This document shows, one piece after another, positions 15,001-62,773 of a DNA stretch of 64,000 nt (positions are counted from its first letter, which is position 1; the number at the start of each line of letters is the position of its first letter). Origin of the DNA: a virus; the IMG/VR virus record IMGVR_UViG_3300037882_001770, positions 186,001 to 250,000 of that record. One strand, 5' to 3'. Made by a program: the position numbers and the translations under genes. The notes under the pieces were generated by a model. The model was given only the letters and a program-made list of their open reading frames with translations, was not told the DNA's origin and ran no database searches.

Positions 15001-15597
15001 ATGCCAAATTTAGTACCCATTGTAGTAGAACAAACCAGCAAAGGCGAACGCAGTTACGATATATATAGTAGACTGCTGCGTGATCGTATTGTAATGCTAG
15101 ATACAGACGTAAACGAGCATACTGCCAGTTTGATAGTGGCTCAGTTGCTGTTTTTAGAAGCAGAAGATCCAGAGCGCGATATTATTTTTTACATCAACAG
15201 CCCAGGTGGCGTAGTCACGGCAGGTATGGCAATTTACGACACTATGAACTTTATTCGCCCGGATGTAAGCACAGTGGTCATGGGCCAGGCATGTAGCATG
15301 GGAAGTTGTTTAGCTCAGGCTGGCGCCGCAGGTAAACGATTTATTTTGCCAAATGCACGTCATATGATTCACCAACCTTCGGGCGGTGCCAGAGGACAAG
15401 CAACAGATATTCAGATTCAAGCACAAGAAATACTCAAAATGAAAAAATACTTAACAGAGATCTATGTCAAGCACAACACTGCTGGCAAAACCTTTGAGCA
15501 GTTGACCGCAGACATGGAACGCGACAACTTTATGAGTGCTGAAGAAGCAGTGGCCTATGGCTTGGCTGATCAGATTATAACTCGACGCGATGCCTAA
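15001..15597 (+). CDS. clpP: ATP-dependent Clp protease proteolytic subunit (ClpP-2)
   Basis: 198 aa, the usual length. N-terminus '[20 protein letters not shown]' and all hallmarks: 'YINSPGG', nucleophile S99 in GQACSMGS, H124 in [12 protein letters not shown], and D175 in [11 protein letters not shown]. It forms a tetradecameric chamber fed by host ClpX or ClpA. It overlaps the radical-SAM gene by 8 nt. Confidence 0.95.
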
Positions 15598-16897
15598 TCA
15601 GCAGGTATTTTGCAACACCCCGTGGTATGAATTACATATCTATTGGGACGGTGGCTTTGGTATTTGTTGTCAAGAAAGCCACCGATTGTATAAAGATTCC
15701 ACACAGTACAACATTGCCAACATGAGCATTATGGAATGGTTTAATAGCCAACCTGTGCGAAAATTCAGAACAGACATACTGGGTGACAGTAAAATATCTG
15801 AGTGCCAGCGTTGTTATATTGAAGAACGACACGGCGGCAACAGTCGTAGATTAAAAAGTAATTTAAAAAGCGTTATCTTTACACGTCAGGCCTTTGATGA
15901 AAGTTTTAAACAAAGTCCAGGATATCCGATATTTTCAACCAACGACCAAACTCAAGGCTACACCACGACCCATCCGATTGATCTGCATGTTGACCTAGGA
16001 AACTACTGTAACTTGGCCTGTAAAATGTGCCATGCACAGGCCAGTAGCACAATTGCAAGCCAAGAAGTAAAATGGGGCATTGCCGAAAGCAAACAGTATC
16101 TTGGTACCGACTGGACCAGAAATCCGCAGGTATGGCAATCGTTTAAACAGCAGTTGTTGGAAATACCAAATTTAAAGAATATACACTTCATGGGCGGCGA
16201 AACTCTACTGACCAATCAATTTGAAGATCTAGTGGACTGGTTGACCGAACATCGACGATTTGAAGTGTGTTTTAGTTTTGTGACCAATGGTACAGTGTTT
16301 AAACCAACACTAATCGACAAACTTAAAAAGTTTCAGCGAGTGGGCATAGAAATCAGTATAGAATCTGTAGATGAACACAATGCTTATCAACGTCAGGGCA
16401 CCGATACTGCTCTGGTACTAGCCAACATCAAACAATATCAAACACACTGCAACAACACCAGCATCACCGTGGCATTACGTCCAGCACCTAGCGCATTGAC
16501 CATTGGCTACTATGTGGGATTATTGCAGTTTGCACTAGACAATCAGTTGGTGGTCAAAAGCAATCTGTGTTACGAGCCAAGATTCTTAAATGCAGAAATA
16601 TTACCTGACAAAACAAAATTGCTTTACCAGTCATATTATCAAGAATTTTTAACACAATTTGCCGATGTACAGGCCAATATCGATTACAATGCCAGCGACT
16701 TGAATAACTATCGATTAATCATCAAAGAACATGCAGAAATGTGCCTGGCCATATTGCAAACCCCGGAGCCCAACGATTATCAACATCAAATTGAATGTCT
16801 GGTCAATCACTGTAGAAAATGGGATGATATTTACGGATACGATGCACGAGTATTATATCCTGAATTAACTGAAATATTGGATCTTTATGGCTATTGA
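15590..16897 (+). CDS. Radical SAM protein with SPASM/twitch-like N-terminal Cys motif (I)
   Basis: 435 aa. The [4Fe-4S]-SAM motif is C140-x3-C144-x2-C147 ([12 protein letters not shown]), followed by MGGET. The N-terminus carries '[21 protein letters not shown]' (C8, C26, C27) and C72-x2-C75, a pattern like the auxiliary-cluster region of SPASM/twitch enzymes, also present in the 49471 gene. It cleaves SAM to a radical for an unknown modification, perhaps of a peptide or fibre. It overlaps clpP by 8 nt and the next gene by 11 nt. Confidence 0.85.
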
Positions 16898-32992: not shown

Positions 32993-33200
32993 GTTTCTAT
33001 ATCATTGCACAATACCCTGGATTGATCAAACCAATCCTATGTATTATTGGGACACATTGTGTGCCAATGCTATAGAATTATTTGGACTTCCGGGAGATAG
33101 GTACATAACCGATATAAGCGAGCACTCAATGACCTGGAGTTTTTGCAACCAACATGACGCATTACTTTTTAAATTAAAATTTGGGGAAACATGTCAGTAA
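32952..33200 (+). CDS. Small protein of the 'F-x-LKF' tail family (up to 82 aa)
   Basis: Ends 'WSFCNQHDALLFKLKFGETCQ', the shared tail motif. The start is uncertain: the frame could begin at TTG 32952, ATG 32955 or TTG 32979. The last gives the smaller overlap with the upstream gene. Confidence 0.55.
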   Translation: MMITYGNTTLREPKFLYHCTIPWIDQTNPMYYWDTLCANAIELFGLPGDRYITDISEHSMTWSFCNQHDALLFKLKFGETCQ

Positions 33201-33823
33201 ACGACGAAATCATTCGTGTAACTCCAATACCAGAATATTTCAACATCACATGGATGCTAGGATCTAGATGCAACTACGATTGTATGTATTGTCCGGCCGA
33301 ATTGCACGATGCTACAAGTCGGCCACACGATTTAGAAACCATGCAAAAGGCGTGGATAAACATACACTCTAAAACAACTAATAAAAACTTGCCTTACAAA
33401 ATTAGTTTCACTGGCGGTGAAGTAACTGCCAATAAAAACTTTTTATCATTGGTTGGGTGGTTAAAATCCAACTACTCTGAAATTGGAATGATATTAACGA
33501 CCACTAACGGCAGCGCCAGTAAACGTTATTACGAACAGTTGAGTCAATCAATTGATTCGATCAGCTTTAGCACTCACAGTGAGTTTATGAACGAAGCAGA
33601 ATTTTTTGACAAGGTGTTGGCAACAGATCGGTTGATGCTACGTCCAGAAAAAAGTGTTCATGTTAACATCATGGACGAATATTGGAATCAGTCACGCATA
33701 CAAATATACAAAGAATTCTTAGAAAAACACAGTATCAGTTATAGCATAAACACAATCGATTACACTAGTAAAATTAGAGAAAACATTTTGAATAACGGAG
33801 TACAAAATCTTGTCGTCACTTGA
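33191..33823 (+). CDS. Radical SAM enzyme, N-terminal part (II, frameshifted)
   Basis: 210 aa. The SAM/[4Fe-4S] motif is C27-x3-C31-x2-C34 (SRCNYDCMYCPAEL), then 'ISFTGGEVTANKNF'. This frame stops at 33823 in the middle of the fold. The missing C-terminal SPASM-like part lies in the +1 frame directly after (33810-34115). Both frames are open together only between 33792 and 33820, and an AAAA run sits there. Most likely one gene of about 310 aa broken by an indel, or a programmed shift. Confidence 0.78.
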   Translation: MSVNDEIIRVTPIPEYFNITWMLGSRCNYDCMYCPAELHDATSRPHDLETMQKAWINIHSKTTNKNLPYKISFTGGEVTANKNFLSLVGWLKSNYSEIGMILTTTNGSASKRYYEQLSQSIDSISFSTHSEFMNEAEFFDKVLATDRLMLRPEKSVHVNIMDEYWNQSRIQIYKEFLEKHSISYSINTIDYTSKIRENILNNGVQNLVVT

Positions 33824-35865: not shown

Positions 35866-36112
35866 TTTTTCGAAGCTGAGTGATATCGGCTAGTGTGACC
35901 CGCACGATAAGTGAAATAATCAATCACGGGTGGTCCCAGTCTAACCTAACTGGCGCTGGCAATGCGTAACGGGCCCTGTAGTGAGCGGGTGAGGACTAGC
36001 TTGTTTCTCTGCTGAATCCGATGGGATAACCAGAGGCAACATAAACCGAATGTTGCAAAGTATAGGGTATAATTGACCGCCTGGGGCTGCAGAGCATTGT
36101 GGTATGTAGAGG
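35866..36112 (+). ncRNA. Candidate structured non-coding RNA (strand inferred)
   Basis: A 247-nt stretch without a gene. Several stems fold from it: GCTAGT (35889-35894) with ACTAGC (35995-36000) closes a domain that contains ACCCG...CGGGT and GTGA...TCAC; CTCTG-ctga-ATCC-gatg-GGAT-aac-CAGAG (36007-36035); and a perfect 7-bp hairpin GCAACAT/ATGTTGC (36036-36056). No tRNA, tmRNA, RNase P or known riboswitch signature recognised. A TATAGT -10-like box lies at 35855-35860. No terminator is obvious. Confidence 0.4.
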
Positions 36113-36141
36113 TTGACATTTCTTAAAGATTCCAGTATAAT
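36113..36141 (+). promoter_or_regulatory. Sigma70-like promoter of the DGQHR/methyltransferase operon
   Basis: GGTTGACA, 17-bp spacer, TATAAT. Predicted start near 36148. Confidence 0.75.
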
Positions 36142-36150
36142 TGTCAAATG

Positions 36151-36209
36151 CTAGCCGATTTAAACTAAAGAAGTCGGCGGCTAGTTATTAACTGACAGTC
36201 TCAGGACTG
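36151..36209 (+). promoter_or_regulatory. Structured 5' leader (two hairpins) of the operon
   Basis: The transcript begins with a CTAGCC...GGCTAG stem (36151-36184, inner CGA/TCG) and then CAGTC-TCAG-GACTG (36196-36209) close to the AAAGGATG ribosome site of the 36228 gene. The placement suggests translational or stability control. Confidence 0.5.
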
Positions 36210-36227
36210 CTATGAAAGGATGTAAAC

Positions 36228-37292
36228 ATGGTACAGCGTCTTACACGTAAACTTACCGATGTGGCCTCGGAAGTTGAAAAGCAAATCAAGGCCCACTACA
36301 ATATCACGCAAAAAATACTAGATAGTTTTCGTGAGCAAGCTCAAGCAAAACACACTCTAGGATATAACTTTCCTGAATCAAAAATGGTTGCCATTGATGA
36401 TCTCTGGATTGATTACGAAGTTCAACGAGATGTGCTACACAAACATATTATCAGTATTATGAAAAATTGGGATCCAAGAATTTGTAGCCCAGTTTCAGCT
36501 TGCAAACTAACAGACCGCGAGCGGTGCGATACATACGACGGCCAGCATCGAACCATCTCTGCGGCAATCCTAGGCTATACAGAAATCCCAGGTGCAGTAG
36601 TTCATACCAACGACCCAAACTTTGCCAGTCTAGCATTTGAACAACTCAACGACACAGGTGTCAAACGTTTGGGTCCAGGCGACTTGCATCGCAATGCCTT
36701 GGTGCGTTATAAAAATGGTAGTCACGAACTTCGCAATGTTCGTGCTCGCATCTTGCAAGATCAGTTTGATAACTTGCAAATTGACCTGCAAGACAAAGGT
36801 GCTAGGTCCAGCGATAACCTACGCGGCGATCACGACTACTTTTTTAGTCATTTTAAATATGCCTACAAGGCTATTGATATTGACGAATCCGGCAAGGTGT
36901 TGTGTGCTGTGTTGGATGCTATAAAAACAGTATTTCCTTTGCAGGAAGAAGTTGATCAAGGTGTGTTTATTGGCCTAGTTGAATTGCAACGATTAACCAA
37001 TACTAATCCACGTAATCAACTACCCACGGATTGGATGAAAACCTTGTTGGAATCTGTTAAATCTACTTTTAAAAGCAGTCATTTGATTCATGCCAAAGCA
37101 AAGATTCAATGGGAACACAGCCATCCAGGTGCAGGTTGGGTCGCTCCTACTGCTATGAGTAACTTCATGCGTGAGATTCATCTACGCAATGGTGGCAAAT
37201 TGAATCTTCCTTATCACGGTGAGGGTGCCAAGGTTGGTATTGTGGATGGTAATGTCGCTCCGGGACTATTTCCACAGGGAGCCGAACAATGA
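36228..37292 (+). CDS. DGQHR/ParB-Srx-like domain protein (354 aa)
   Basis: The motif 'CDTYDGQHRTISAAILGYTEIPGAVV' (about residues 103-128) is the DGQHR signature shared by ParB/sulfiredoxin-like nucleotide- and DNA-binding domains and by DndB-type proteins. The preceding 'IDDLWIDYEVQRDVLHKHI' is the usual beta-helix lead-in. The C-terminal 200 residues are helical and unassigned. First gene of a five-gene overlapping operon ending in a DNA methyltransferase, so a DNA-related role (nucleotide hydrolysis or modification control) is likely. Confidence 0.75.
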   Translation: MVQRLTRKLTDVASEVEKQIKAHYNITQKILDSFREQAQAKHTLGYNFPESKMVAIDDLWIDYEVQRDVLHKHIISIMKNWDPRICSPVSACKLTDRERCDTYDGQHRTISAAILGYTEIPGAVVHTNDPNFASLAFEQLNDTGVKRLGPGDLHRNALVRYKNGSHELRNVRARILQDQFDNLQIDLQDKGARSSDNLRGDHDYFFSHFKYAYKAIDIDESGKVLCAVLDAIKTVFPLQEEVDQGVFIGLVELQRLTNTNPRNQLPTDWMKTLLESVKSTFKSSHLIHAKAKIQWEHSHPGAGWVAPTAMSNFMREIHLRNGGKLNLPYHGEGAKVGIVDGNVAPGLFPQGAEQ

Positions 37293-37771
37293 ATCCTACC
37301 ATCACAATCAACCTGGCAGATATTTGGGACTATACAGAAATTCCACACATCATGCGAAATCACATGATTGCTGAGTATGGCTATGCTTTTAGACGTGGTA
37401 ACATGATTCTCAAGTACGGATTAAGTGCCGACAACTCTAGAATTTACGGCGAACGTATCTATCGTCAATCCGGCAATTTACCAGGATGGAGAAAACTGCT
37501 GGGCGGCCCCAGTGGTAGCGACATGGCAGATATTGCTCGTGAGTTTGAACAAATATACGGTCTGGAGTTGAATAGAAAAGATGTGTCTATTGATGTTTAC
37601 CAGATGCCCAATGCCTCTGCTTGTGCTGAGTTCGAACGCAAACTGATCACCGATTATATATGGACTCACGAAGGATCAGCACCACTGGGTAACAAAGATT
37701 TTGAGACCTTGCTGGAAGAGCGCAAGTATCGTAATACCCGTATGTTGTCTACTATCATAGAGTTTATCTAA
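37289..37771 (+). CDS. Possible GIY-YIG-like nuclease domain (160 aa)
   Basis: 'YGYAFRRGNMILKYGLSAD' could be a degenerate version of the 'GYVY.....iyKiG.s' start of the GIY-YIG fold. Later elements 'CAEFERKLITDYIW' (Glu) and 'APLGNKDF' (Asn) fit the metal-binding Glu and conserved Asn. The classical GIY/YIG tyrosines are not clear, so the assignment is weak. ATGA overlap with the DGQHR gene. Confidence 0.45.
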   Translation: MNPTITINLADIWDYTEIPHIMRNHMIAEYGYAFRRGNMILKYGLSADNSRIYGERIYRQSGNLPGWRKLLGGPSGSDMADIAREFEQIYGLELNRKDVSIDVYQMPNASACAEFERKLITDYIWTHEGSAPLGNKDFETLLEERKYRNTRMLSTIIEFI

Positions 37772-37773
37772 CC

Positions 37774-38331
37774 ATGCTTAAAGAATCTCTAGATACGTTT
37801 GTTGCACCCAACTACGGTAAGACTCAGCGCAGTCCCGAAACTTATCAAGCGGTAGCTCAACATTGTCGCCAGCACTTGATTCACTTGGTTACCGAATATC
37901 ATCTTGTAAATAATAATCAACAATTATTACGAGAAATTCGTAACGATATGGATTATTACCTACGACGATATCACGAATACTGTATCCAACAACGTGATGG
38001 TATGAAAGCGCACTACTATGAAATTGGCGCCGACGATGACTGTGACTTTGAACACTTGATACCAGCAGCTCGAATTCGTGATCTGCTGTTATTTGGGATC
38101 ATCACTGTAGAGCAAGCTCTTAATGCTCCTACTGTAAGATTGAGTCGCGCTAAACACATGGCGCTCAAAGATGCTGGTTGGGCCAGTAAAACTCCCGACA
38201 TGTGGTTACCGTTCCGTCGATACACTCAGGTATTTGCCGCAAACTTTCAAACGCATGACGGGGTAGCAATAGATACAGAAACATGGACATTAGAAAAACA
38301 TTTTGATTATTTTAAACATTTGGTGTTATAA
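37774..38331 (+). CDS. Hypothetical protein of the methyltransferase operon (185 aa)
   Basis: All-helical protein: N-terminal 'ETYQAVAQHCRQHLIHLVTE', acidic patch 'GADDDCDFEHLIPAARIRDLLLFG', C-terminal Trp-rich region. No family recognised. Between 37289 and 38331, coupled to both. Confidence 0.55.
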   Translation: MLKESLDTFVAPNYGKTQRSPETYQAVAQHCRQHLIHLVTEYHLVNNNQQLLREIRNDMDYYLRRYHEYCIQQRDGMKAHYYEIGADDDCDFEHLIPAARIRDLLLFGIITVEQALNAPTVRLSRAKHMALKDAGWASKTPDMWLPFRRYTQVFAANFQTHDGVAIDTETWTLEKHFDYFKHLVL

Positions 38332-38777
38332 TGAGTGAAATTACTTTTAAACGATTTCCTGAAAGCAAGCAAGAACAGATCAGACAGTTTGTGGCCTATG
38401 CACAGATGTGTGGCTTGTCGGGCAAGGACATTCGCAGCATCGGTGACAAGCTGGATCGGCAACGCAAGGTCAGCGAGCGGCAGGCCAACATGGAAATCGT
38501 TAAAGGCTTTGAGTGTTTAAGCATTGGGGATGATGCCAAGAAATACGATAAAAAATATCAACTCAACCAACGTTTCAAACTCAAAACTGCTAACGGCGCT
38601 TACAACTTTGTTTACAACTGGGGTGGTTATACGGTCACCAGTTTAAAAACTAAAAAAACTGTAAGCCACAAGACTGACATCCATGCTTATGAACTTCCGG
38701 TTAGAAACTATGATGAAGTCGCTCGTTATGCAACCTTGTTGGATATTGCATTTGGTAAATTGAAACTGAATTTTTAA
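38331..38777 (+). CDS. Hypothetical protein of the methyltransferase operon (148 aa)
   Basis: Basic protein. A helical N-terminus (EQIRQFVAYAQMCGLSGKDI; 'GDKLDRQRKVSERQAN') resembles a small DNA-binding helical domain. The C-terminus is beta-rich (AYNFVYNWGGYTVTSLKTKK). Exact 1-nt overlaps (TAATG) both sides. Unknown. Confidence 0.55.
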   Translation: MSEITFKRFPESKQEQIRQFVAYAQMCGLSGKDIRSIGDKLDRQRKVSERQANMEIVKGFECLSIGDDAKKYDKKYQLNQRFKLKTANGAYNFVYNWGGYTVTSLKTKKTVSHKTDIHAYELPVRNYDEVARYATLLDIAFGKLKLNF

Positions 38778-39925
38778 TGATTGAACAATACTATCAACAG
38801 CTATGTCAGGAGTGGGGATATACGCCCACCGCCGATGTATGCACAGGTTACGAATCGGTTATGCCTAGATTGCGAGCACTTGGCAAAGAAGCATGGAACC
38901 GAGCCGACGAAGCGGGGAAGCAATCGATTCAGGATGAAGTATTTAATATCTATCGCAGTGTGGGCGTAGTTCCTATTACCTACTACAATCTGGACGGGTG
39001 TCGTGCTCAAGTCAATGAACTAGTAACCAAGACAAAGTCAGTTAAGAATCATCAGTTAGGAGTGGGCAACAACGAAGGCTTGGCATTTGGTCGGTTTTGG
39101 TTTCCTAACATGCAAGATGCCAAATGGAACGACAACGCCACAGTGAGTATTCGGGCTAGATTTAATCACGACAGCAAACTCAAACGAGCAATCAAGTTGG
39201 CCTATGTACATCGCGACGAAGGTGAGGACACAGTAATACCCAAAAATATTCGCCGTGCATTGGAGCTGGTCAATGGTGGGACCATACAAAACTTCAAACC
39301 TATGAATGCTCGTGCTGTTTGGGAACATATCTGCCCAGTATTTCGTGGCAACGTATTAGACTTTAGTTCGGGATATGGTGGTCGTATGTTTGGAGCAATG
39401 ACTAGTAATCTACGATATCATTACACAGGATTAGATCCAAATACCAGGACATTTCAAGGACTCAATGCACTGGGTGAATTACTTACAGATCAAAATTTAG
39501 GGGCAGGTTATTCTATGCACTGTATTCCCAGTGAGGAATTTGATCCAGACCCTGGCTTCTACGATGCGGCATTCTCTAGTCCACCTTATTTTAATTTAGA
39601 AACCTACACCGATGAACCAACACAATGTATGAATCGTTATACTACATTAGACGAATGGTTTGATGGATATGTAGTTGAAACTATACACATGACTCACAAG
39701 GCATTATGTCAGGGCGGTATGTATGCTGTAAACATTGCTGACTACAAGAACGGAAAGCAAGATTTTAAGATTGTAAACCACTGGATTGAACTAGCCGAAG
39801 CGACTGGATTCAGGCACGTCGAAACAATAGATATGATACTAAATGTTCGCCCAGGAGTTGGCAACAACAAGTTGGAAAAAGCCTACAAAAGCGAAGGCAT
39901 CTATATTTTCCAAAAAAAATCATAA
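38777..39925 (+). CDS. DNA methyltransferase (SPPY-type, 382 aa)
   Basis: SAM-binding motif I is 'NVLDFSSGYGGRMFGAM', and the catalytic motif IV is 'AAFSSPPYFNLETY' (SPPY, the usual (D/N/S)PP(Y/F) of amino-methylating DNA methyltransferases). A 'GLDPNT' acidic motif lies between them. The N-terminal 150 residues may recognise the target. Likely N6-adenine or N4-cytosine methylation of DNA. Last gene of the operon. Confidence 0.8.
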   Translation: MIEQYYQQLCQEWGYTPTADVCTGYESVMPRLRALGKEAWNRADEAGKQSIQDEVFNIYRSVGVVPITYYNLDGCRAQVNELVTKTKSVKNHQLGVGNNEGLAFGRFWFPNMQDAKWNDNATVSIRARFNHDSKLKRAIKLAYVHRDEGEDTVIPKNIRRALELVNGGTIQNFKPMNARAVWEHICPVFRGNVLDFSSGYGGRMFGAMTSNLRYHYTGLDPNTRTFQGLNALGELLTDQNLGAGYSMHCIPSEEFDPDPGFYDAAFSSPPYFNLETYTDEPTQCMNRYTTLDEWFDGYVVETIHMTHKALCQGGMYAVNIADYKNGKQDFKIVNHWIELAEATGFRHVETIDMILNVRPGVGNNKLEKAYKSEGIYIFQKKS

Positions 39926-40036: not shown

Positions 40037-40180
40037 ATGGAACAATATGTATGTGGAGTATGTGGCCACGTTCACAATGAGGCCGTCGAAGGTGTGTTTG
40101 CAGAACTTAGCGACAACTTTCTTTGCCCTGAGTGCGGGTGCTACAAAGATGAGTACGCAGTACAAGAACTAGCAGTATAA
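40037..40180 (+). CDS. Rubredoxin-like protein (47 aa)
   Basis: Short iron-only electron carrier: 'YVCGVCGHVHNEAVEGVFAEL' then 'FLCPECGCYKDEY', giving C6-x2-C9 and C30-x2-C33, as in rubredoxin, although the loop between them is shorter than the usual ~52-54-aa proteins. RBS AAAAGGAAAT. Next to a rubrerythrin that lacks its own rubredoxin domain, so the two probably form an electron-transfer pair. Confidence 0.82.
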   Translation: MEQYVCGVCGHVHNEAVEGVFAELSDNFLCPECGCYKDEYAVQELAV

Positions 40181-40182
40181 GG

Positions 40183-40211
40183 TCGACACAGTGAGTAAAT
40201 CACTGTATAAT
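40183..40211 (+). promoter_or_regulatory. Sigma70-like promoter of rubrerythrin gene with operator-like dyad
   Basis: TCGACA, 17-bp spacer, TATAAT. The spacer is filled by a perfect palindrome ACAGTGA-GTAAA-TCACTGT (40188-40206), ideally placed for a repressor to block RNA polymerase. Confidence 0.6.
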
Positions 40212-40237
40212 TGTTTTTTTATAAAGGAGAAGTAAAG

Positions 40238-40678
40238 ATGGCAAAATCAGTAAAAGGTACCAAAACAGAACACGCATTGAAAGATGCGTTTGCAGGTGAA
40301 AGCAAAGCCAACCGCCGTTATTTGTATTTCGCAAACATGGCTGACGTAGCAGGCGCACCAGATGTTGCGGCAGTATTCCGTTCCACCGCTGAAGGCGAAA
40401 CAGGTCATGCACACGGCCATATGGAGTACTTGATCACAGGTGGTGCAGGCGATCCTGAAACAGGTCTTCCAGCTGGTTCAGTCAAAGAAGCTTTAGAAAG
40501 TGCTATCGCAGGCGAGACACACGAGTACACCGACATGTACCCAGGCATGGCTAAGACAGCCCGCGACGAAGGCTTTGACGAAATCGCTGACTGGTTTGAG
40601 ACTTTGGCTAAGGCTGAGCGTAGCCACGCAAACAAGTTCACCAAGACTTTGGCGGCTCACTTAGAAGACATCAAGTAA
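40238..40678 (+). CDS. Rubrerythrin (di-iron peroxidase), without C-terminal rubredoxin domain
   Basis: 146 aa. The start is set at [20 protein letters not shown] behind AAAGGAGAAG. The four-helix bundle has both di-iron motif pairs: '[15 protein letters not shown]' and '[14 protein letters not shown]', then '[13 protein letters not shown]' and '[14 protein letters not shown]'. Rubrerythrins reduce H2O2 with electrons from rubredoxin. The usual C-terminal rubredoxin domain is missing and is supplied as a separate gene 57 bp upstream. Confidence 0.92.
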
Positions 40679-41549: not shown

Positions 41550-42374
41550 ATGCCAGAAAAAACCTACAGATCAATTTTTATTTCGGATGTACATCTCGGT
41601 ACCCGTGACTGCAAGGCCGAAGCTCTCAACAACTTTCTCAAACACAACACCTGCGAAACCCTGTATCTTGTAGGAGACATAATTGACGCATGGAAAATAC
41701 AACAGAACAAGTGGCGATGGAAACAAAGCCACACCAATGTGATACGCAGAGTAATGGGTCATGCCAAACGTGGCACTCGAGTAATTTATGTGGCCGGCAA
41801 CCACGATGAATTTCTAAGACCCTTGATACCTTTGGGCATTGGCTTTGGCCTGATCGAAGTGGTAAATCAAGCAGAACACATAGGCGTGGATGGCCGACAC
41901 TATCTGGTCACACATGGTGATCTGTTCGACGGTATTACTAGACTGGCACCGTGGCTAGCATTTCTGGGTGACAAACTTTATGATTTTGTATTAAACTTAA
42001 ATTCACAGTTCAATGCTGTTCGTCGTAGGTTGCGCTTGGGTTATTGGAGTCTAAGCCGGTATCTCAAATACAAAGTCAAAAAAGCCGCCGATTTTTTGTT
42101 TCAGTTTGAACGTAATCTTGCTACCTACTGCAAGAAGCGTGGCTACGATGGTGTTATTTGTGGGCACATACATCATGCAGAAATCAAAGAGATAGATGGA
42201 ATCATGTACATGAATGACGGAGACTGGGTTGAGAGTATGACCGCCTTGGTTGAACATCATTCAGGAACATGGGAAATCATAACCTGGACCAAGGAGCACG
42301 ACGATGTGGATACTGATACTGTTGGCCGTGAACATAAACAATCCAAACGACGTACCCGGAAGAGTAAGCATTGA
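41550..42374 (+). CDS. LpxH-like UDP-2,3-diacylglucosamine diphosphatase-family phosphoesterase
   Basis: 274 aa. 'SIFISDVHLGTRDCKAEALN', 'LYLVGDIIDAW', 'VIYVAGNHDEF', 'YLVTHGDLFDG' and 'VICGHIHHAEI' give the full metallophosphoesterase set of the LpxH/YbbF subfamily, which cleaves UDP-diacylglucosamine in lipid A synthesis. A basic tail (KQSKRRTRKSKH) follows. It is paired with a glycosyltransferase as in bacterial LPS loci, which suggests envelope or glycan modification. The substrate may differ from lipid A precursor. Confidence 0.8.
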   Translation: MPEKTYRSIFISDVHLGTRDCKAEALNNFLKHNTCETLYLVGDIIDAWKIQQNKWRWKQSHTNVIRRVMGHAKRGTRVIYVAGNHDEFLRPLIPLGIGFGLIEVVNQAEHIGVDGRHYLVTHGDLFDGITRLAPWLAFLGDKLYDFVLNLNSQFNAVRRRLRLGYWSLSRYLKYKVKKAADFLFQFERNLATYCKKRGYDGVICGHIHHAEIKEIDGIMYMNDGDWVESMTALVEHHSGTWEIITWTKEHDDVDTDTVGREHKQSKRRTRKSKH

Positions 42375-42477
42375 GTTTGCCACCGAATCTGAATGTGTGC
42401 GGGCTCAGTCCACTGTGCAGTCGTGGTTGAAATTTGATTCTTTTCGAGTGATTACCAAATGTCAAAAACAATCTTAG
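42304..42477 (+). CDS. Small exported-looking protein, overlapping two genes (57 aa)
   Basis: Frame starting MWILILLAVNINNPNDVPGR in a different frame from its neighbours. It overlaps the 3' end of the phosphoesterase gene by 71 nt and the 5' end of the glycosyltransferase gene by 19 nt. N-terminal hydrophobic segment, then 'FATESECVRAQSTVQSWLKF' and 'ITKCQKQS', a Cys pattern typical of small secreted phage proteins. Moderately likely to be real. Confidence 0.5.
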   Translation: MWILILLAVNINNPNDVPGRVSIEFATESECVRAQSTVQSWLKFDSFRVITKCQKQS

Positions 42478-43466
42478 TAATAACCGACAATGTTCCAGAT
42501 CAAATCAACGGTGTGGTCACAACTTTCAAAAACCTGGAAAGTCACGCTGTTGACGCTGGGCATTGTGTTGTTTATCTTGATCCCTCTCAGTTTCCTCATT
42601 GTGCTTGCCCTGGGTATCCTGAAGTTCAACTCTGCTGGCCACACGGCATTAGCACGAAGATTAAGGCGATACAGCCGTCGTATATTCACATTGCCACCGA
42701 AGGCCCAGTAGGCCTATTTGCTCGCTGGTGGTGTGAGCGAAATCACATTCCCTACAATACCAGTTATCACACCGACTTTGCCAAGTTTCTAAAGAAAATG
42801 TATCGTGTGCCTGAGTCCGTGACCTGGTGGTATCTGCGTTGGTTTCACAAGAACAGTCACAGGGTGCTGGTTACAACAGAAAGCATACGGCAAGACTTGT
42901 TGACTCGTGGATTCGCCAATCTGCGTGTGTGGACTCGAGGAGTAGACCGAACCATATTTAACAGCACTCATCGTGGTGAAACTGTGGCAGGCGGTCCGGT
43001 ACTGTTAAGTGTTGGTCGGGTAAGTGTTGAAAAAGGCCTAGATGATTTTTGCCGATTAGACATTCCAGGCGCCACCAAAATTGTAGTTGGGGACGGTCCA
43101 TATAGACAAGAATTACAACGCCGGTATCCTGATATCGTTTTTGTGGGAAGTAAACAAGGAACCGACTTGGCTCGGTATTATGCTCAAGCCGATGTGTTTG
43201 TTTTTGCCAGTCGTGCTGACACTTTTGGTGTGGTCAACATTGAAGCATTGGCCTGCGGAACCCCGGTTGCGGCCTATCCTGTTGCAGGACCCAAGGATAT
43301 TGTTGAGCCTGGACTTACCGGATTCTTAAACAACAATTTACAATTAGCAGTGCAACAGTGCTTGACTCTGGATCGTGCGGCGGTAGAAACAGCCAGCCTA
43401 CAATGGACCTGGGCAGAATGTTGGCGTATATTTGAGGACAATCTAGTAGACTGTTCTGTTGCCTAA
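42459..43466 (+). CDS. Glycosyltransferase family 4 (alpha-mannosyltransferase-like)
   Basis: 335 aa, GT-B fold. N-terminal 'ILVITDNVPDQINGVVTTF'; donor side with 'LLSVGRVSVEKGLDDF', 'KIVVGDGPY', 'DVFVFASRADTFGVVNIEALACGTPVAAY' (the EX7E-type motif) and 'GPKDIV'. Transfers a sugar to an unknown acceptor, like the MgtA/PimB group. Companion of the LpxH-like gene. Followed by a terminator. Confidence 0.88.
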   Translation: MSKTILVITDNVPDQINGVVTTFKNLESHAVDAGHCVVYLDPSQFPHCACPGYPEVQLCWPHGISTKIKAIQPSYIHIATEGPVGLFARWWCERNHIPYNTSYHTDFAKFLKKMYRVPESVTWWYLRWFHKNSHRVLVTTESIRQDLLTRGFANLRVWTRGVDRTIFNSTHRGETVAGGPVLLSVGRVSVEKGLDDFCRLDIPGATKIVVGDGPYRQELQRRYPDIVFVGSKQGTDLARYYAQADVFVFASRADTFGVVNIEALACGTPVAAYPVAGPKDIVEPGLTGFLNNNLQLAVQQCLTLDRAAVETASLQWTWAECWRIFEDNLVDCSVA

Positions 43467-49470: not shown

Positions 49471-50604
49471 ATGAGTTCTTGGTATTGTGCTTTACCTTTT
49501 AAACATGTGTTTGTGGACAGTACAGGACTTAGTCCTTGTTGCAATACCGTCGGACAATTTGGGCTTGACGTCAGTATAGACGAATACAAATCACATCCTA
49601 AGTTACTAGAATTACAAAAACAATTTCTTGATGGGCGCACTCCTGCTGCATGCTCTGTTTGCTTGCACCAAGAAAAAATTCAAAACAAAAGTATGAGAAT
49701 AGACAGTAATATTGACTACAATCATCGGGTGTTTGATTCTACCGAGTTTGATTTTATACACCTTAGTCAAAGTAACTTGTGTAATTTCAAATGCCGCAGT
49801 TGTAGTCCAAGATACAGCCACGGAATAGTTCAAGAACACAAAAAATATCCCGAATTGTTTGCGGACGCACCTCAACAAAAATTCGTCGAAGTCAATCCTG
49901 ACAATTATAAATGGATTATTAAAAATTTATCAAGTATTAAAAGACTTTTAATAACCGGCGGAGAGCCCACAGTAATGCCAGAAATAAGACATTTGTTTGA
50001 ATTTTTGTTGCAAACACCGCGGCCGCAACCACAACCGTATATTATGATGACAACCAATTGTAGCTGGACTGATAATTTTTGGTATCAAGCAATTGACGGT
50101 ATGTCTAATTTGCATATCACAGCTAGTGTAGATGCAGTAGGAGATGCTGCGCAACTAATAAGACACGGTACTGTTTGGAATCAGGTAGAGCGCAACGTGA
50201 AGTGGTTAGCCCAGCATGCCTCGAGTTTTGATATCAATACGGTAATTAGCAATTTAAATATAAACCATCTTTATGATTTACTTCAATTCTGCAGACAAGA
50301 ACAAATAGCCTCCAAAGTAGAAAATGGAGGGAAACAGGGAGATTTGGGACTACGGCATCAATTTACTATAGCTAACGGTGTCAATGAGATTACCTGTTTT
50401 CCGGATGATCTAAAAACAAAAACACTAAAACATTTGGATCAGTGCCTTGCATTGGATCTAGATCCAGACCAACTGAAATTGATCAAGGGGTTAATTGTAA
50501 CTGTTCAAAATAGTACATACAATCATCAAAAATGGCAAAGTATTGTAGAATATCAAACCAAACTTGATCAAATTCGTGGTGAAAACCATTTGAAACTACT
50601 CTAA
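49471..50604 (+). CDS. Radical SAM protein with SPASM/twitch-like N-terminal Cys motif (III)
   Basis: 377 aa. The SAM motif is C104-x3-C108-x2-C111 (NLCNFKCRSCSP), then 'LLITGGEPTVMPE'. The N-terminus has 'YCALPFKHVFVDSTGLSPCC' (C6, C23, C24) and C61-x2-C64, the same layout as the 15590 protein, so they are paralogues. The gene abuts IF-1 and precedes Fe-SOD and an Fe-S carrier. Substrate unknown. Confidence 0.86.
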   Translation: MSSWYCALPFKHVFVDSTGLSPCCNTVGQFGLDVSIDEYKSHPKLLELQKQFLDGRTPAACSVCLHQEKIQNKSMRIDSNIDYNHRVFDSTEFDFIHLSQSNLCNFKCRSCSPRYSHGIVQEHKKYPELFADAPQQKFVEVNPDNYKWIIKNLSSIKRLLITGGEPTVMPEIRHLFEFLLQTPRPQPQPYIMMTTNCSWTDNFWYQAIDGMSNLHITASVDAVGDAAQLIRHGTVWNQVERNVKWLAQHASSFDINTVISNLNINHLYDLLQFCRQEQIASKVENGGKQGDLGLRHQFTIANGVNEITCFPDDLKTKTLKHLDQCLALDLDPDQLKLIKGLIVTVQNSTYNHQKWQSIVEYQTKLDQIRGENHLKLL

Positions 50605-60663: not shown

Positions 60664-61580
60664 AAGAACTTTGGGTAGAAAAATATAGACCTAATACTAT
60701 AGACGGTTACGTATTTCGCGACACCGCTCAGCGGGAACAAATTGAAAGCTGGATCAAGGATCGAGCAATTCCACATTTGATATTCAGTGGCAATGCTGGC
60801 ATTGGAAAAACAACACTGGCTAAGATTTTGATCAATCAGCTCGAAATAAACGAATATGATCTATTGGAAATCAATGCCAGTCGAACCAACAGTGTTGACG
60901 ATGTTAGAGTAAAGATTCAGACCTTTGTAGAAACAATGCCCTTTGGCGACTTCAAAATTGTGTTGTTAGACGAAGCAGATTATCTAAGCCCTAATGCTCA
61001 AGCCGCACTTCGAGGAGTTATGGAAACCTATGCGCATACAGCCAGATTTATTTTAACCTGTAACTACCCAACCAAGATTATTCCGGCACTACACAGTCGC
61101 TGTCAGGGCTTTCACATTGAACGTGTTGACATGACTGAATTTACTGCTCGAGCAGCTACAGTGCTGGTTGAAGAATCAATTGAATTTGACCTAGATACCC
61201 TAGATACCTATGTCAAGGCTGCTTATCCAGACCTGCGCAAATGTTTAAATACCTTGCAAATGAATAGTTCGTCGGGTAAACTGTTGGTCCCCAGTGGCGA
61301 TGCCGGCAGTACAGGCGACTGGAAACTGTCGGCAGTTGAATTGTTTAAAGAAGGGCGGATCAATGACGCTCGCAAACTGATGTGTAGTCAAGCTCGGCCC
61401 GAGGAAATGGAAGATGTATTCCGTTGGATGTACGACAACTTGTCGTTATGGAGCAAGGACACCGAAAAGCAAGATCAAGCAATTATTATCATTCGTAACG
61501 GCTTGGTGAATGTGCCAATGGTGGCGGATCAGGAGATCAATCTATCAGCAACTATCACGGAACTTTGCCAGTTGCAATGA
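60660..61580 (+). CDS. 44: Sliding-clamp loader ATPase subunit (T4 gp44-like)
   Basis: 306 aa AAA+ RFC-type ATPase. 'LWVEKYRPNTIDGYVF' N-terminus, Walker A GNAGIGKTT (44-52), Walker B 'IVLLDEAD' (D104-D107), sensor 'ILTCNYP', and arginine-finger motif 'HSRCQ' (S146-R147-C148). With gp62 it loads the clamp on primed DNA. A gp62 gene was not recognised in this window. Ends by ATGA overlap with a radical-SAM gene. Confidence 0.94.
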   Translation: MKELWVEKYRPNTIDGYVFRDTAQREQIESWIKDRAIPHLIFSGNAGIGKTTLAKILINQLEINEYDLLEINASRTNSVDDVRVKIQTFVETMPFGDFKIVLLDEADYLSPNAQAALRGVMETYAHTARFILTCNYPTKIIPALHSRCQGFHIERVDMTEFTARAATVLVEESIEFDLDTLDTYVKAAYPDLRKCLNTLQMNSSSGKLLVPSGDAGSTGDWKLSAVELFKEGRINDARKLMCSQARPEEMEDVFRWMYDNLSLWSKDTEKQDQAIIIIRNGLVNVPMVADQEINLSATITELCQLQ

Positions 61581-62773
61581 AAAAGGTAATACCGATACAG
61601 ACAGATCGTGATTATTATTGTTCAAATAAATTTACTTTTTTAAAAATTGATTTTGAAAAACAAACCACGTATAATTGTCATGCAGCCACACCCCATCCAA
61701 TTGATTTTGTCTGGTTAGAAAATAATCCTGGGCAATTGTTTAATACGCCAATCAACATGTCTGAACGTGAGTTGATGTTGGATAATCAACGTAACCCTAG
61801 TTGTGAACAAAACTGCTATCCAGCCGAAGATCGTGGCCAGGTCAGTACTCGAATGTTACAGTCTACTCCGGATCGTCAATACACTGATGTTCTAACTCAC
61901 CCCAAGCTGGTGGACTTTACACTGTTTAGTGAATGCAACCTTACCTGTAGTTATTGTTGCAAAGAATACAGCAGTGCCTGGCGCAATGACTTGTTAAAAA
62001 ACGGATCGTATGATCTGCCAAATTACGCCAATCAAAATCGCATGAAATTGTTGCCTATAGATATTGTGTCTGGTAAGGTAAGTCAAAAAGAAAAAGCAAA
62101 TTTGCCTAAGATAAAATTGCTATTGGAGCAAGTTTACAACAGTCGAGAACATCTTGAAATTTTAACCATCACCGGCGGGGAGCCATTTCTAAACAATCTG
62201 CTACCAGAGATATTAGAAAAATTTAAAACAGTTCCTAGAATTGATTTGTTTACTGGTCTTGGAGTTAACACCGAACGATTTAAAAAAATATTATCTGTGG
62301 TATCACAATACAAAAATATCAACTTGTGCATCAGTGCCGAATCTACAGAAAAAAATTACGAGTTTAACCGCTACGGCATGACTTGGCAAAATTTTCAAGA
62401 ACGATTAAAAATTATTCAAGATCTTGGAATCAAATTTGAATTCCACTGCACTATCTCTAATCTTACAGTGTTAGGGTTCAAGGACTTTTATAAACTCTAC
62501 AAAGATGTCAAACTACATATAGACTTTGTGCATCACCCCGATTTTATGTCAGCCAGCAACTTAGATCCTGCATCCAAACAACAAGTCATAGATGATTTAT
62601 TGCCATATCAAGACGATGTAAAAATCCAACAGATATTACAAACCGTAATCAGCGATCATGTAAATAACGATCATAGGGTAACTATGGCCACGTGGCTAGA
62701 GCAGTTTGCTAGTCGTCGACAACTTGATTTAAATTTATACCCAAAAACTTTTTTAGATTGGCTAAAACAATGA
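61577..62773 (+). CDS. Radical SAM protein (IV)
   Basis: 398 aa from the ATGA-overlap ATG (MKKVIPIQTDRDYYCSNKFT). The SAM motif is C120-x3-C124-x2-C127 (ECNLTCSYCCKE), then 'LTITGGEPFLNN'. The N-terminal C15, C34, C76 and C80 could be an auxiliary cluster site. A distinct subfamily from the 15590/49471 pair. Placed within the replication cluster; substrate unknown. Confidence 0.83.
   Translation: MKKVIPIQTDRDYYCSNKFTFLKIDFEKQTTYNCHAATPHPIDFVWLENNPGQLFNTPINMSERELMLDNQRNPSCEQNCYPAEDRGQVSTRMLQSTPDRQYTDVLTHPKLVDFTLFSECNLTCSYCCKEYSSAWRNDLLKNGSYDLPNYANQNRMKLLPIDIVSGKVSQKEKANLPKIKLLLEQVYNSREHLEILTITGGEPFLNNLLPEILEKFKTVPRIDLFTGLGVNTERFKKILSVVSQYKNINLCISAESTEKNYEFNRYGMTWQNFQERLKIIQDLGIKFEFHCTISNLTVLGFKDFYKLYKDVKLHIDFVHHPDFMSASNLDPASKQQVIDDLLPYQDDVKIQQILQTVISDHVNNDHRVTMATWLEQFASRRQLDLNLYPKTFLDWLKQ

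What the first reader, a model, noticed from the sequence alone, without database searches (positions are those of the whole stretch)
35866..39925. Unassigned five-gene operon with structured leader: DGQHR/ParB-like, GIY-YIG-like, two unknowns and a DNA methyltransferase
A tight operon (gaps from -4 to +2 nt) under one strong promoter begins with a DGQHR-domain protein, includes a possible degenerate GIY-YIG nuclease and two unknown helical or basic proteins, and ends in an SPPY methyltransferase. The combination suggests a phage-encoded DNA-modification, self-protection or anti-restriction system I cannot place in a known class. The structured RNA and hairpin leader just upstream add possible control.
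Basis: partly seen in the sequence, partly recalled or inferred. Interest (0 to 1): 0.66.

Follow-up and report, generated by a model that had tools for sequence, protein, structure and literature searches.

The report
Phage cassette with swappable DNA-cutting gene
A very large virus of bacteria carries a two-gene core next to one small DNA-cutting gene, which relatives exchange for unrelated cutters, and sometimes next to a DNA-marking gene; this looks like an interchangeable weapon-and-shield kit against other DNA in the cell, but no activity has been tested.

Summary
The five-gene operon is real: 36228-39925, junctions -4, +2, -1 and -1 nt, behind a perfect sigma70 promoter. It is not a fixed five-gene set. 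The gene between them is a nuclease slot: 66 loci carry 68 intact, tightly coupled ORFs of nine unrelated families (HNH, GIY-YIG, PD-(D/E)XK-like, one MvaI/BcnI-type); 22 are empty, but six of those have a nuclease abutting p1 or p3 on the outside. Window p2 belongs to the GIY-YIG slot family and keeps its catalytic residues. Other architectures pair ParB-like genes with a nuclease and the same SPPY methyltransferase, or with an HNH plus swapped nucleases. Best reading: a phage-borne, modular restriction-modification-like nuclease cassette, with a GmrSD-like core by analogy only (profile tests of membership failed). Homing endonucleases drifting into a hotspot is the main rival; the varied position of the nuclease and its near-absence elsewhere argue against it. 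The 'structured RNA' upstream is not supported. Activity and target are untested.

The parts
36113..36141 (+). sigma70-type promoter TTGACA-17-TATAAT, 12/12 consensus
36150..36209 (+). 5' leader with two small hairpins (36150-36181 and about 36196-36209); weak support
   Evidence: z -1.8; one compensatory pair in 3 sequences; absent in L095
36228..37292 (+). p1: ParB/Srx-fold protein with QR pair (Q66 R67), D-x-Q-H-R (104-108) and F137xxxN141; constant core gene
   Evidence: motif definitions in PMC4619093
37289..37771 (+). p2: GIY-YIG-like nuclease, the window's occupant of the variable nuclease slot (family F2)
   Evidence: invariant Y30, Y32, K42, G44, R56, E116, N135; linked to a p1-like gene in 13/13 IMG/VR loci
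37774..38331 (+). p3: HNH-like (beta-beta-alpha metal) protein, constant core gene; E93, H94, P97, N117 invariant, H128 replaced by D in distant members
   Evidence: follows p1 in 88 loci
38331..38777 (+). p4: unknown accessory protein, found directly after p3 in 3 of 88 loci
38777..39925 (+). p5: SPPY-type DNA methyltransferase (phrog_12517), optional partner

Best explanation
A modular, phage-borne nuclease cassette that works like a restriction-modification or modification-sensing system. p1, a ParB/Srx-type nucleotide switch, and p3, an HNH-like nuclease, form a constant core comparable in logic to GmrS and GmrD. One exchangeable nuclease (here the GIY-YIG p2) supplies a second cutter or a target specificity, and phages swap it for unrelated nucleases at the start, middle or end of the operon. 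Where the phage's own genome would be at risk, a modifying enzyme (here the SPPY methyltransferase p5, elsewhere an ABC-GNAT protein or another methyltransferase) marks its own DNA. The likely target is DNA of competing phages or of the host. Shown here: operon structure, the conserved core, the nuclease slot and its swaps, retained catalytic residues, and independent recurrence of ParB-like + nuclease + methyltransferase. Inferred: enzymatic activity, cooperation of the proteins, protection by p5, and the target.
For: Core: p3 follows p1 in 88 distinct loci, single copy each in 20/20 records, and p1 and p3 distances are correlated. Slot: 66 of 88 loci hold 68 intact same-strand ORFs in nine families that fill 98-102% of the gap and overlap or abut both neighbours; shuffled gaps give such ORFs in 3/3300. 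65 of 71 hits to the six main nuclease families fall in the slot, which is 4% of the bases. Nucleases also abut the operon's ends: F3 before p1 (L131), F4 before p1 (L080), F2 after p3 (L116), F5 after p3 (L047); two further nuclease-like genes follow p3 in L035 and L049. F2 is linked to a p1-like gene in 13/13 IMG/VR loci, including very distant p1. A second p1 lineage repeats the plan: p1' + canonical HNH (PF01844, 1.7e-10) + swapped F2, F1 or F3-like nuclease within otherwise identical surroundings. ParB-like + nuclease + SPPY methyltransferase recurs in L319/L322, L338, L354 and L325; L325's ParB-like protein touches TIGR03187 DGQHR (E 0.0038, below its cut-off).
Against: No enzyme activity is known for any part. 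Most loci lack an adjacent modification gene, so self-protection is unexplained there. 16 of 88 loci have no recognised nuclease directly next to the core. GIY-YIG and PD-(D/E)XK assignments of F2, F3, F4 and F8 rest on motifs; library hits are weak or absent. p3 has no significant fold match. Profile comparison with GmrSD-family proteins failed.
Confidence: 0.52

Rival explanations
1. Homing hotspot: p1-p3 is an ordinary conserved pair with its own function, and the junction is repeatedly invaded by free-standing homing endonucleases of different folds.
For: HNH and GIY-YIG types are common phage homing enzymes (general knowledge); presence/absence and rapid turnover of the insert (42 changes on the p1 tree, nearly as many as with shuffled labels, 45-55); F0-like hits elsewhere in the same genomes, one of them strong in a phage without p1-p3; L103 and L028 carry an HNH with NUMOD-like repeats, a homing-type domain plan.
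Against: Nucleases also sit immediately before p1 or after p3, so there is no single target junction; F2 and F3 were found nowhere else in 18 genome records; F2 follows p1-like genes across very distant lineages; all 66 occupied gaps hold intact, translationally coupled ORFs, with no decayed copies; one occupant is an MvaI/BcnI-type restriction enzyme; the same families fill the variable slot of a second p1' lineage.
Confidence: 0.17
2. Host takeover: the nucleases degrade the host chromosome for nucleotides, as T4 endonuclease II (a GIY-YIG enzyme, from general knowledge) does; the methyltransferase protects phage DNA.
For: The phage carries a clamp-loader subunit of the T4-like phrog_168 family; GIY-YIG and HNH nucleases; strong consensus promoter; modification genes in some loci.
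Against: Does not explain fast swapping among nine nuclease families, which fits changing opponents better; relatives at similar genome size lack p3 altogether.
Confidence: 0.16
3. DNA hypermodification or regulatory operon in which the ParB-like protein and the methyltransferase are the point, and the nuclease-like genes are non-cutting binders.
For: ParB-like proteins occur in phage base-modification pathways (general knowledge), and DndB is a regulator of phosphorothioation (PMC4507180).
Against: p5 is absent from most p1-p3 loci; nuclease catalytic residues are kept.
Confidence: 0.08

Closest known systems
GmrSD / BrxU / SspE-type enzymes (DUF262 ParB/Srx domain + DUF1524 HNH domain)
   Same: ParB/Srx-fold protein with QR pair, DGQ(Q/H)R and FxxxN motifs, paired with an HNH-type protein with (E/D)H-x-x-P...N (PMC4619093)
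   Different: No match to PF07510 or PF14072, none listed for PF03235 at E<=1, and no profile similarity to the BrxU family; separate genes; exchangeable third nuclease and optional modification gene
DGQHR / DndB family (TIGR03187, PF14072)
   Same: D-x-Q-H-R, QR pair and FxxxN motifs
   Different: No library match for p1; no dnd genes seen in the neighbourhood
Weaponised phage homing endonucleases (gp210 of PhiPA3, PMC11620839)
   Same: Phage nuclease that may harm a co-infecting phage
   Different: gp210 is intron-encoded and site-specific in one gene; here the nuclease is an interchangeable operon gene with a ParB/HNH core
Type II restriction-modification systems
   Same: Nuclease next to a DNA methyltransferase; one occupant is MvaI/BcnI-type; L049 and L269 have a nuclease-like gene + SPPY methyltransferase
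   Different: Constant ParB-like and HNH genes; many loci without a methyltransferase; same methyltransferase beside unrelated nucleases

Membership tests
GmrSD (Type IV restriction) | Profile match to DUF262/PF03235 in the S subunit | tested here: not met
   p1: no Pfam family at E<=1; hhalign with BrxU-family N-terminal profile negative (low diversity of p1 limits power)
GmrSD (Type IV restriction) | Profile match to DUF1524/PF07510 in the D subunit | tested here: not met
   p3: no hit
GmrSD (Type IV restriction) | QR pair, DGQ(Q/H)R, FxxxN motifs and ParB/Srx fold | tested here: met
   Q66 R67, D104xQHR108, F137xxxN141 invariant in 64 sequences; fold search; motifs
GmrSD (Type IV restriction) | HNH motif (E/D)H-x-x-P ... 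N in the partner | tested here: met
   E93 H94 P97 N117 invariant, also in 39-42% identical members
GmrSD (Type IV restriction) | NTP-dependent cleavage of modified DNA | not testable with these tools
   needs biochemistry
DndB / DGQHR family | Profile match to PF14072 or TIGR03187 | tested here: not met
   only the distant ParB-like protein of L325 reaches E 0.0038, below cut-off
GIY-YIG nucleases (p2) | Y, (Y/K)-x-G, R, E, N in order | tested here: met
   invariant in 12/12
GIY-YIG nucleases (p2) | Profile or structural match | tested here: inconclusive
   no significant Pfam hit for p2; weak whole-length profile alignment with F4; neighbouring slot families match MUG113/T5orf172; p2 not modelled
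HNH / beta-beta-alpha-metal nucleases (p3) | strand with (D/E)H, Asn, strand, helix topology | tested here: inconclusive
   order of elements in the model fits, but no significant PDB or viral fold match
Free-standing homing endonucleases (slot genes) | insertion at one homologous site | tested here: not met
   nuclease found before, between and after p1-p3
Free-standing homing endonucleases (slot genes) | site-specific cleavage of the insert-free allele | not testable with these tools
   needs biochemistry
DNA methyltransferase (p5) | motif I (DFSSGYG) and catalytic SPPY | tested here: met
   D195, S197, G199, G201, G202 and S268-P-P-Y271 invariant in 8 aligned members; phrog_12517 2.7e-12 and phrog_498 DNA methyltransferase 0.0028

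The most novel reading that the evidence does not exclude
A new class of phage weapon system: a constant ParB/Srx-HNH core that accepts interchangeable nuclease cartridges from all three major small-nuclease folds (with optional modification shields), which phages swap to attack changing competitors or hosts.
Probability: 0.35. Interest if true: 0.88.

Novelty: new variant of a known kind. Interest (0 to 1): 0.72.

Why it matters
If true, large phages carry their own plug-in restriction-like systems, and the identity of the plugged-in nuclease can be read directly from sequence. Dozens of natural swaps in one genomic frame make specificity, self-protection and inter-phage warfare testable by exchanging single genes, and the p1/p3 core would be a phage counterpart to the ParB/HNH logic known from bacterial Type IV restriction.

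Tried and rejected
Fixed five-gene system: rejected, p2, p4 and p5 are replaceable. Structured RNA upstream: not above chance; a three-sequence consensus fold gave 19 two-sided changes but also many broken pairs and is not trusted. Formal GmrSD or DndB membership: failed profile tests. Bacterial relatives of p1 or p3: none found in GTDB genomes by pattern scan. PDB sequence search of p1, p3 and p2: only hits judged to be chance. PADLOC and NCBIfam: nothing convincing for p1-p4; a p4 hit to a Cas5 model (3e-4) over a short helical part was judged spurious.

Full report
What is there. The window is part of a 317,493-base IMG/VR virus record. The five ORFs are as described, with junctions of -4, +2, -1 and -1 nt behind a perfect sigma70 promoter. 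Curated libraries recognise none of the first four genes convincingly. The upstream 'structured RNA' is not supported; a small leader hairpin is shared only with the two nearest relatives.

The set of five is not conserved; a pair is. Searching with p1 and then with p1 and p3 profiles gave 88 distinct viral loci in which p3 follows p1. Each is single copy in 20 of 20 longer records. Two relatives of similar genome size and with a related clamp loader (G021, G022) lack p3, so the pair is accessory. p5 accompanies the pair in at least 11 of the 88, an ABC-ATPase+GNAT protein in 8, and p4 in 3. One locus without p1 (L036) has HNH + p3 + a methyltransferase with a TDPPY motif, which fits the single Pfam N6_N4 match in that set.

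The nuclease slot. Between p1 and p3, 66 of 88 loci carry 68 ORFs, all on the same strand, in nine families by single linkage: F0 zinc-type HNH (19), F1 endonuclease-VII-like HNH (16), F2 GIY-YIG-like including the window's p2 (12), F3 PD-(D/E)XK-like (10), F4 and F5 GIY-YIG-like (4 each), F6 MvaI/BcnI type (1), F7 HNH with NUMOD-like repeats (1), F8 PD-(D/E)XK-like (1). Support from libraries: HNH and endonuclease VII matches and MvaI_BcnI at 2e-8; T5orf172 above cut-off for a relative of F5. F3, F4 and F8 are assigned from motifs only. The ORFs fill 98-102% of the gap and overlap or abut both neighbours; shuffled gaps do this in 3 of 3300 trials. 65 of 71 hits of the six main families lie in the slot, which makes up 4% of the bases.

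Why this looks functional rather than a homing hotspot. In loci with an empty slot the nuclease can abut the outside of the pair: F3 before p1 in L131, F4 before p1 in L080, F2 after p3 in L116, F5 after p3 in L047; nuclease-like genes also follow p3 in L035 and L049. F2 and F3 occur nowhere else in 18 records. In all of IMG/VR the 13 loci found with F2 all have a p1-like gene nearby, including ones with barely detectable p1 similarity. F3-like genes are less strictly linked: some of the 17 found lie without p1 or p3. One distant p1 lineage repeats the design: p1' (DGQQH), a canonical HNH, and then F2, F1 or an F3-like gene, within otherwise identical flanks. The type of insert changes 42 times on the p1 tree against 45-55 with shuffled labels, so turnover is very fast, while p1 and p3 distances stay correlated (r 0.46, best permutation 0.19).

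The methyltransferase. p5 belongs to a widespread phage family. Apart from p1-p3 loci it sits directly behind ParB-like + nuclease pairs in at least four architectures: L319/L322 (ParB-like, 120-aa GIY-YIG-like gene), L338 (ParB-like, HNH-like gene), L354 (ParB-like, T5orf172-like gene) and L325 (GIY-YIG-like gene, then DGQHT ParB-like). The nuclease assignments there are from motifs; Pfam support is weak or absent. So the window's trio p1, p2, p5 recurs in principle, without p3 or p4.

The core proteins. p1 is modelled with pLDDT 90 and matches KorB/Noc/ParB and, more weakly, sulfiredoxins. Its QR pair, D-x-Q-H-R and FxxxN are invariant, the three motifs that PMC4619093 gives for DGQHR and GmrS domains. 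p3 is modelled with pLDDT 93; its strand-E-H, Asn, strand, helix order fits an HNH fold, with E93, H94, P97 and N117 invariant even in members 39-42% identical, matching the (E/D)H-x-x-P...N motif of GmrD. But p3 has no significant structural match, and p1 and p3 fail profile tests for GmrSD and DndB. The claim is therefore 'works like', not 'is a'. Full GmrSD proteins do occur in a few phage records, so a phage-borne enzyme of that type is not new in itself.

Mechanism, with steps marked. Shown: architecture, conservation, swapping, retained catalytic residues, recurrence with modification genes. Inferred: p1 acts as a nucleotide switch on DNA, p3 and the slot nuclease cut, and p5 or other modifiers protect the phage's own DNA; the target is DNA of rival phages or the host. 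A homing endonuclease of a jumbo phage has been shown to suppress a co-infecting phage (PMC11620839), which makes the competition reading plausible. The alternatives are a homing hotspot, host DNA breakdown, or a modification/regulatory operon.

Noticed in passing
33191-33823, 15590-16897, 49471-50604, 61565-62773: Several radical-SAM genes in one phage genome segment.
   Followed up: no
40037-40678: Rubrerythrin (PF02915, 2.8e-25) preceded by a small zinc-type protein, downstream of the operon; both conserved in L003, rubrerythrin in L002.
   Followed up: no
41550-43466: Putative LpxH-like phosphoesterase and a glycosyltransferase gene, judged from sequence only.
   Followed up: no
L002:8081-9142, L003, L013, L067, L084, L132, L233, L257: Fusion of an ABC-type ATPase with a GNAT domain next to p3 or next to slot nucleases; possible DNA-modifying partner.
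   Followed up: partly
L264:3477-4259, L035, L053, L103: A 250-260 aa nuclease-like family (D-V-K / D-I-K motif) directly after p3 or after an F3-like gene.
   Followed up: partly
L246:5273-6301, L299:7012-8889: UvsW-like helicase with an intein-like insertion.
   Followed up: no
L328-L330, L332, L340, L343, L344, L361-L364: The SPPY methyltransferase is preceded by a second, N6-type-looking methyltransferase in many phages without p1-p3.
   Followed up: no
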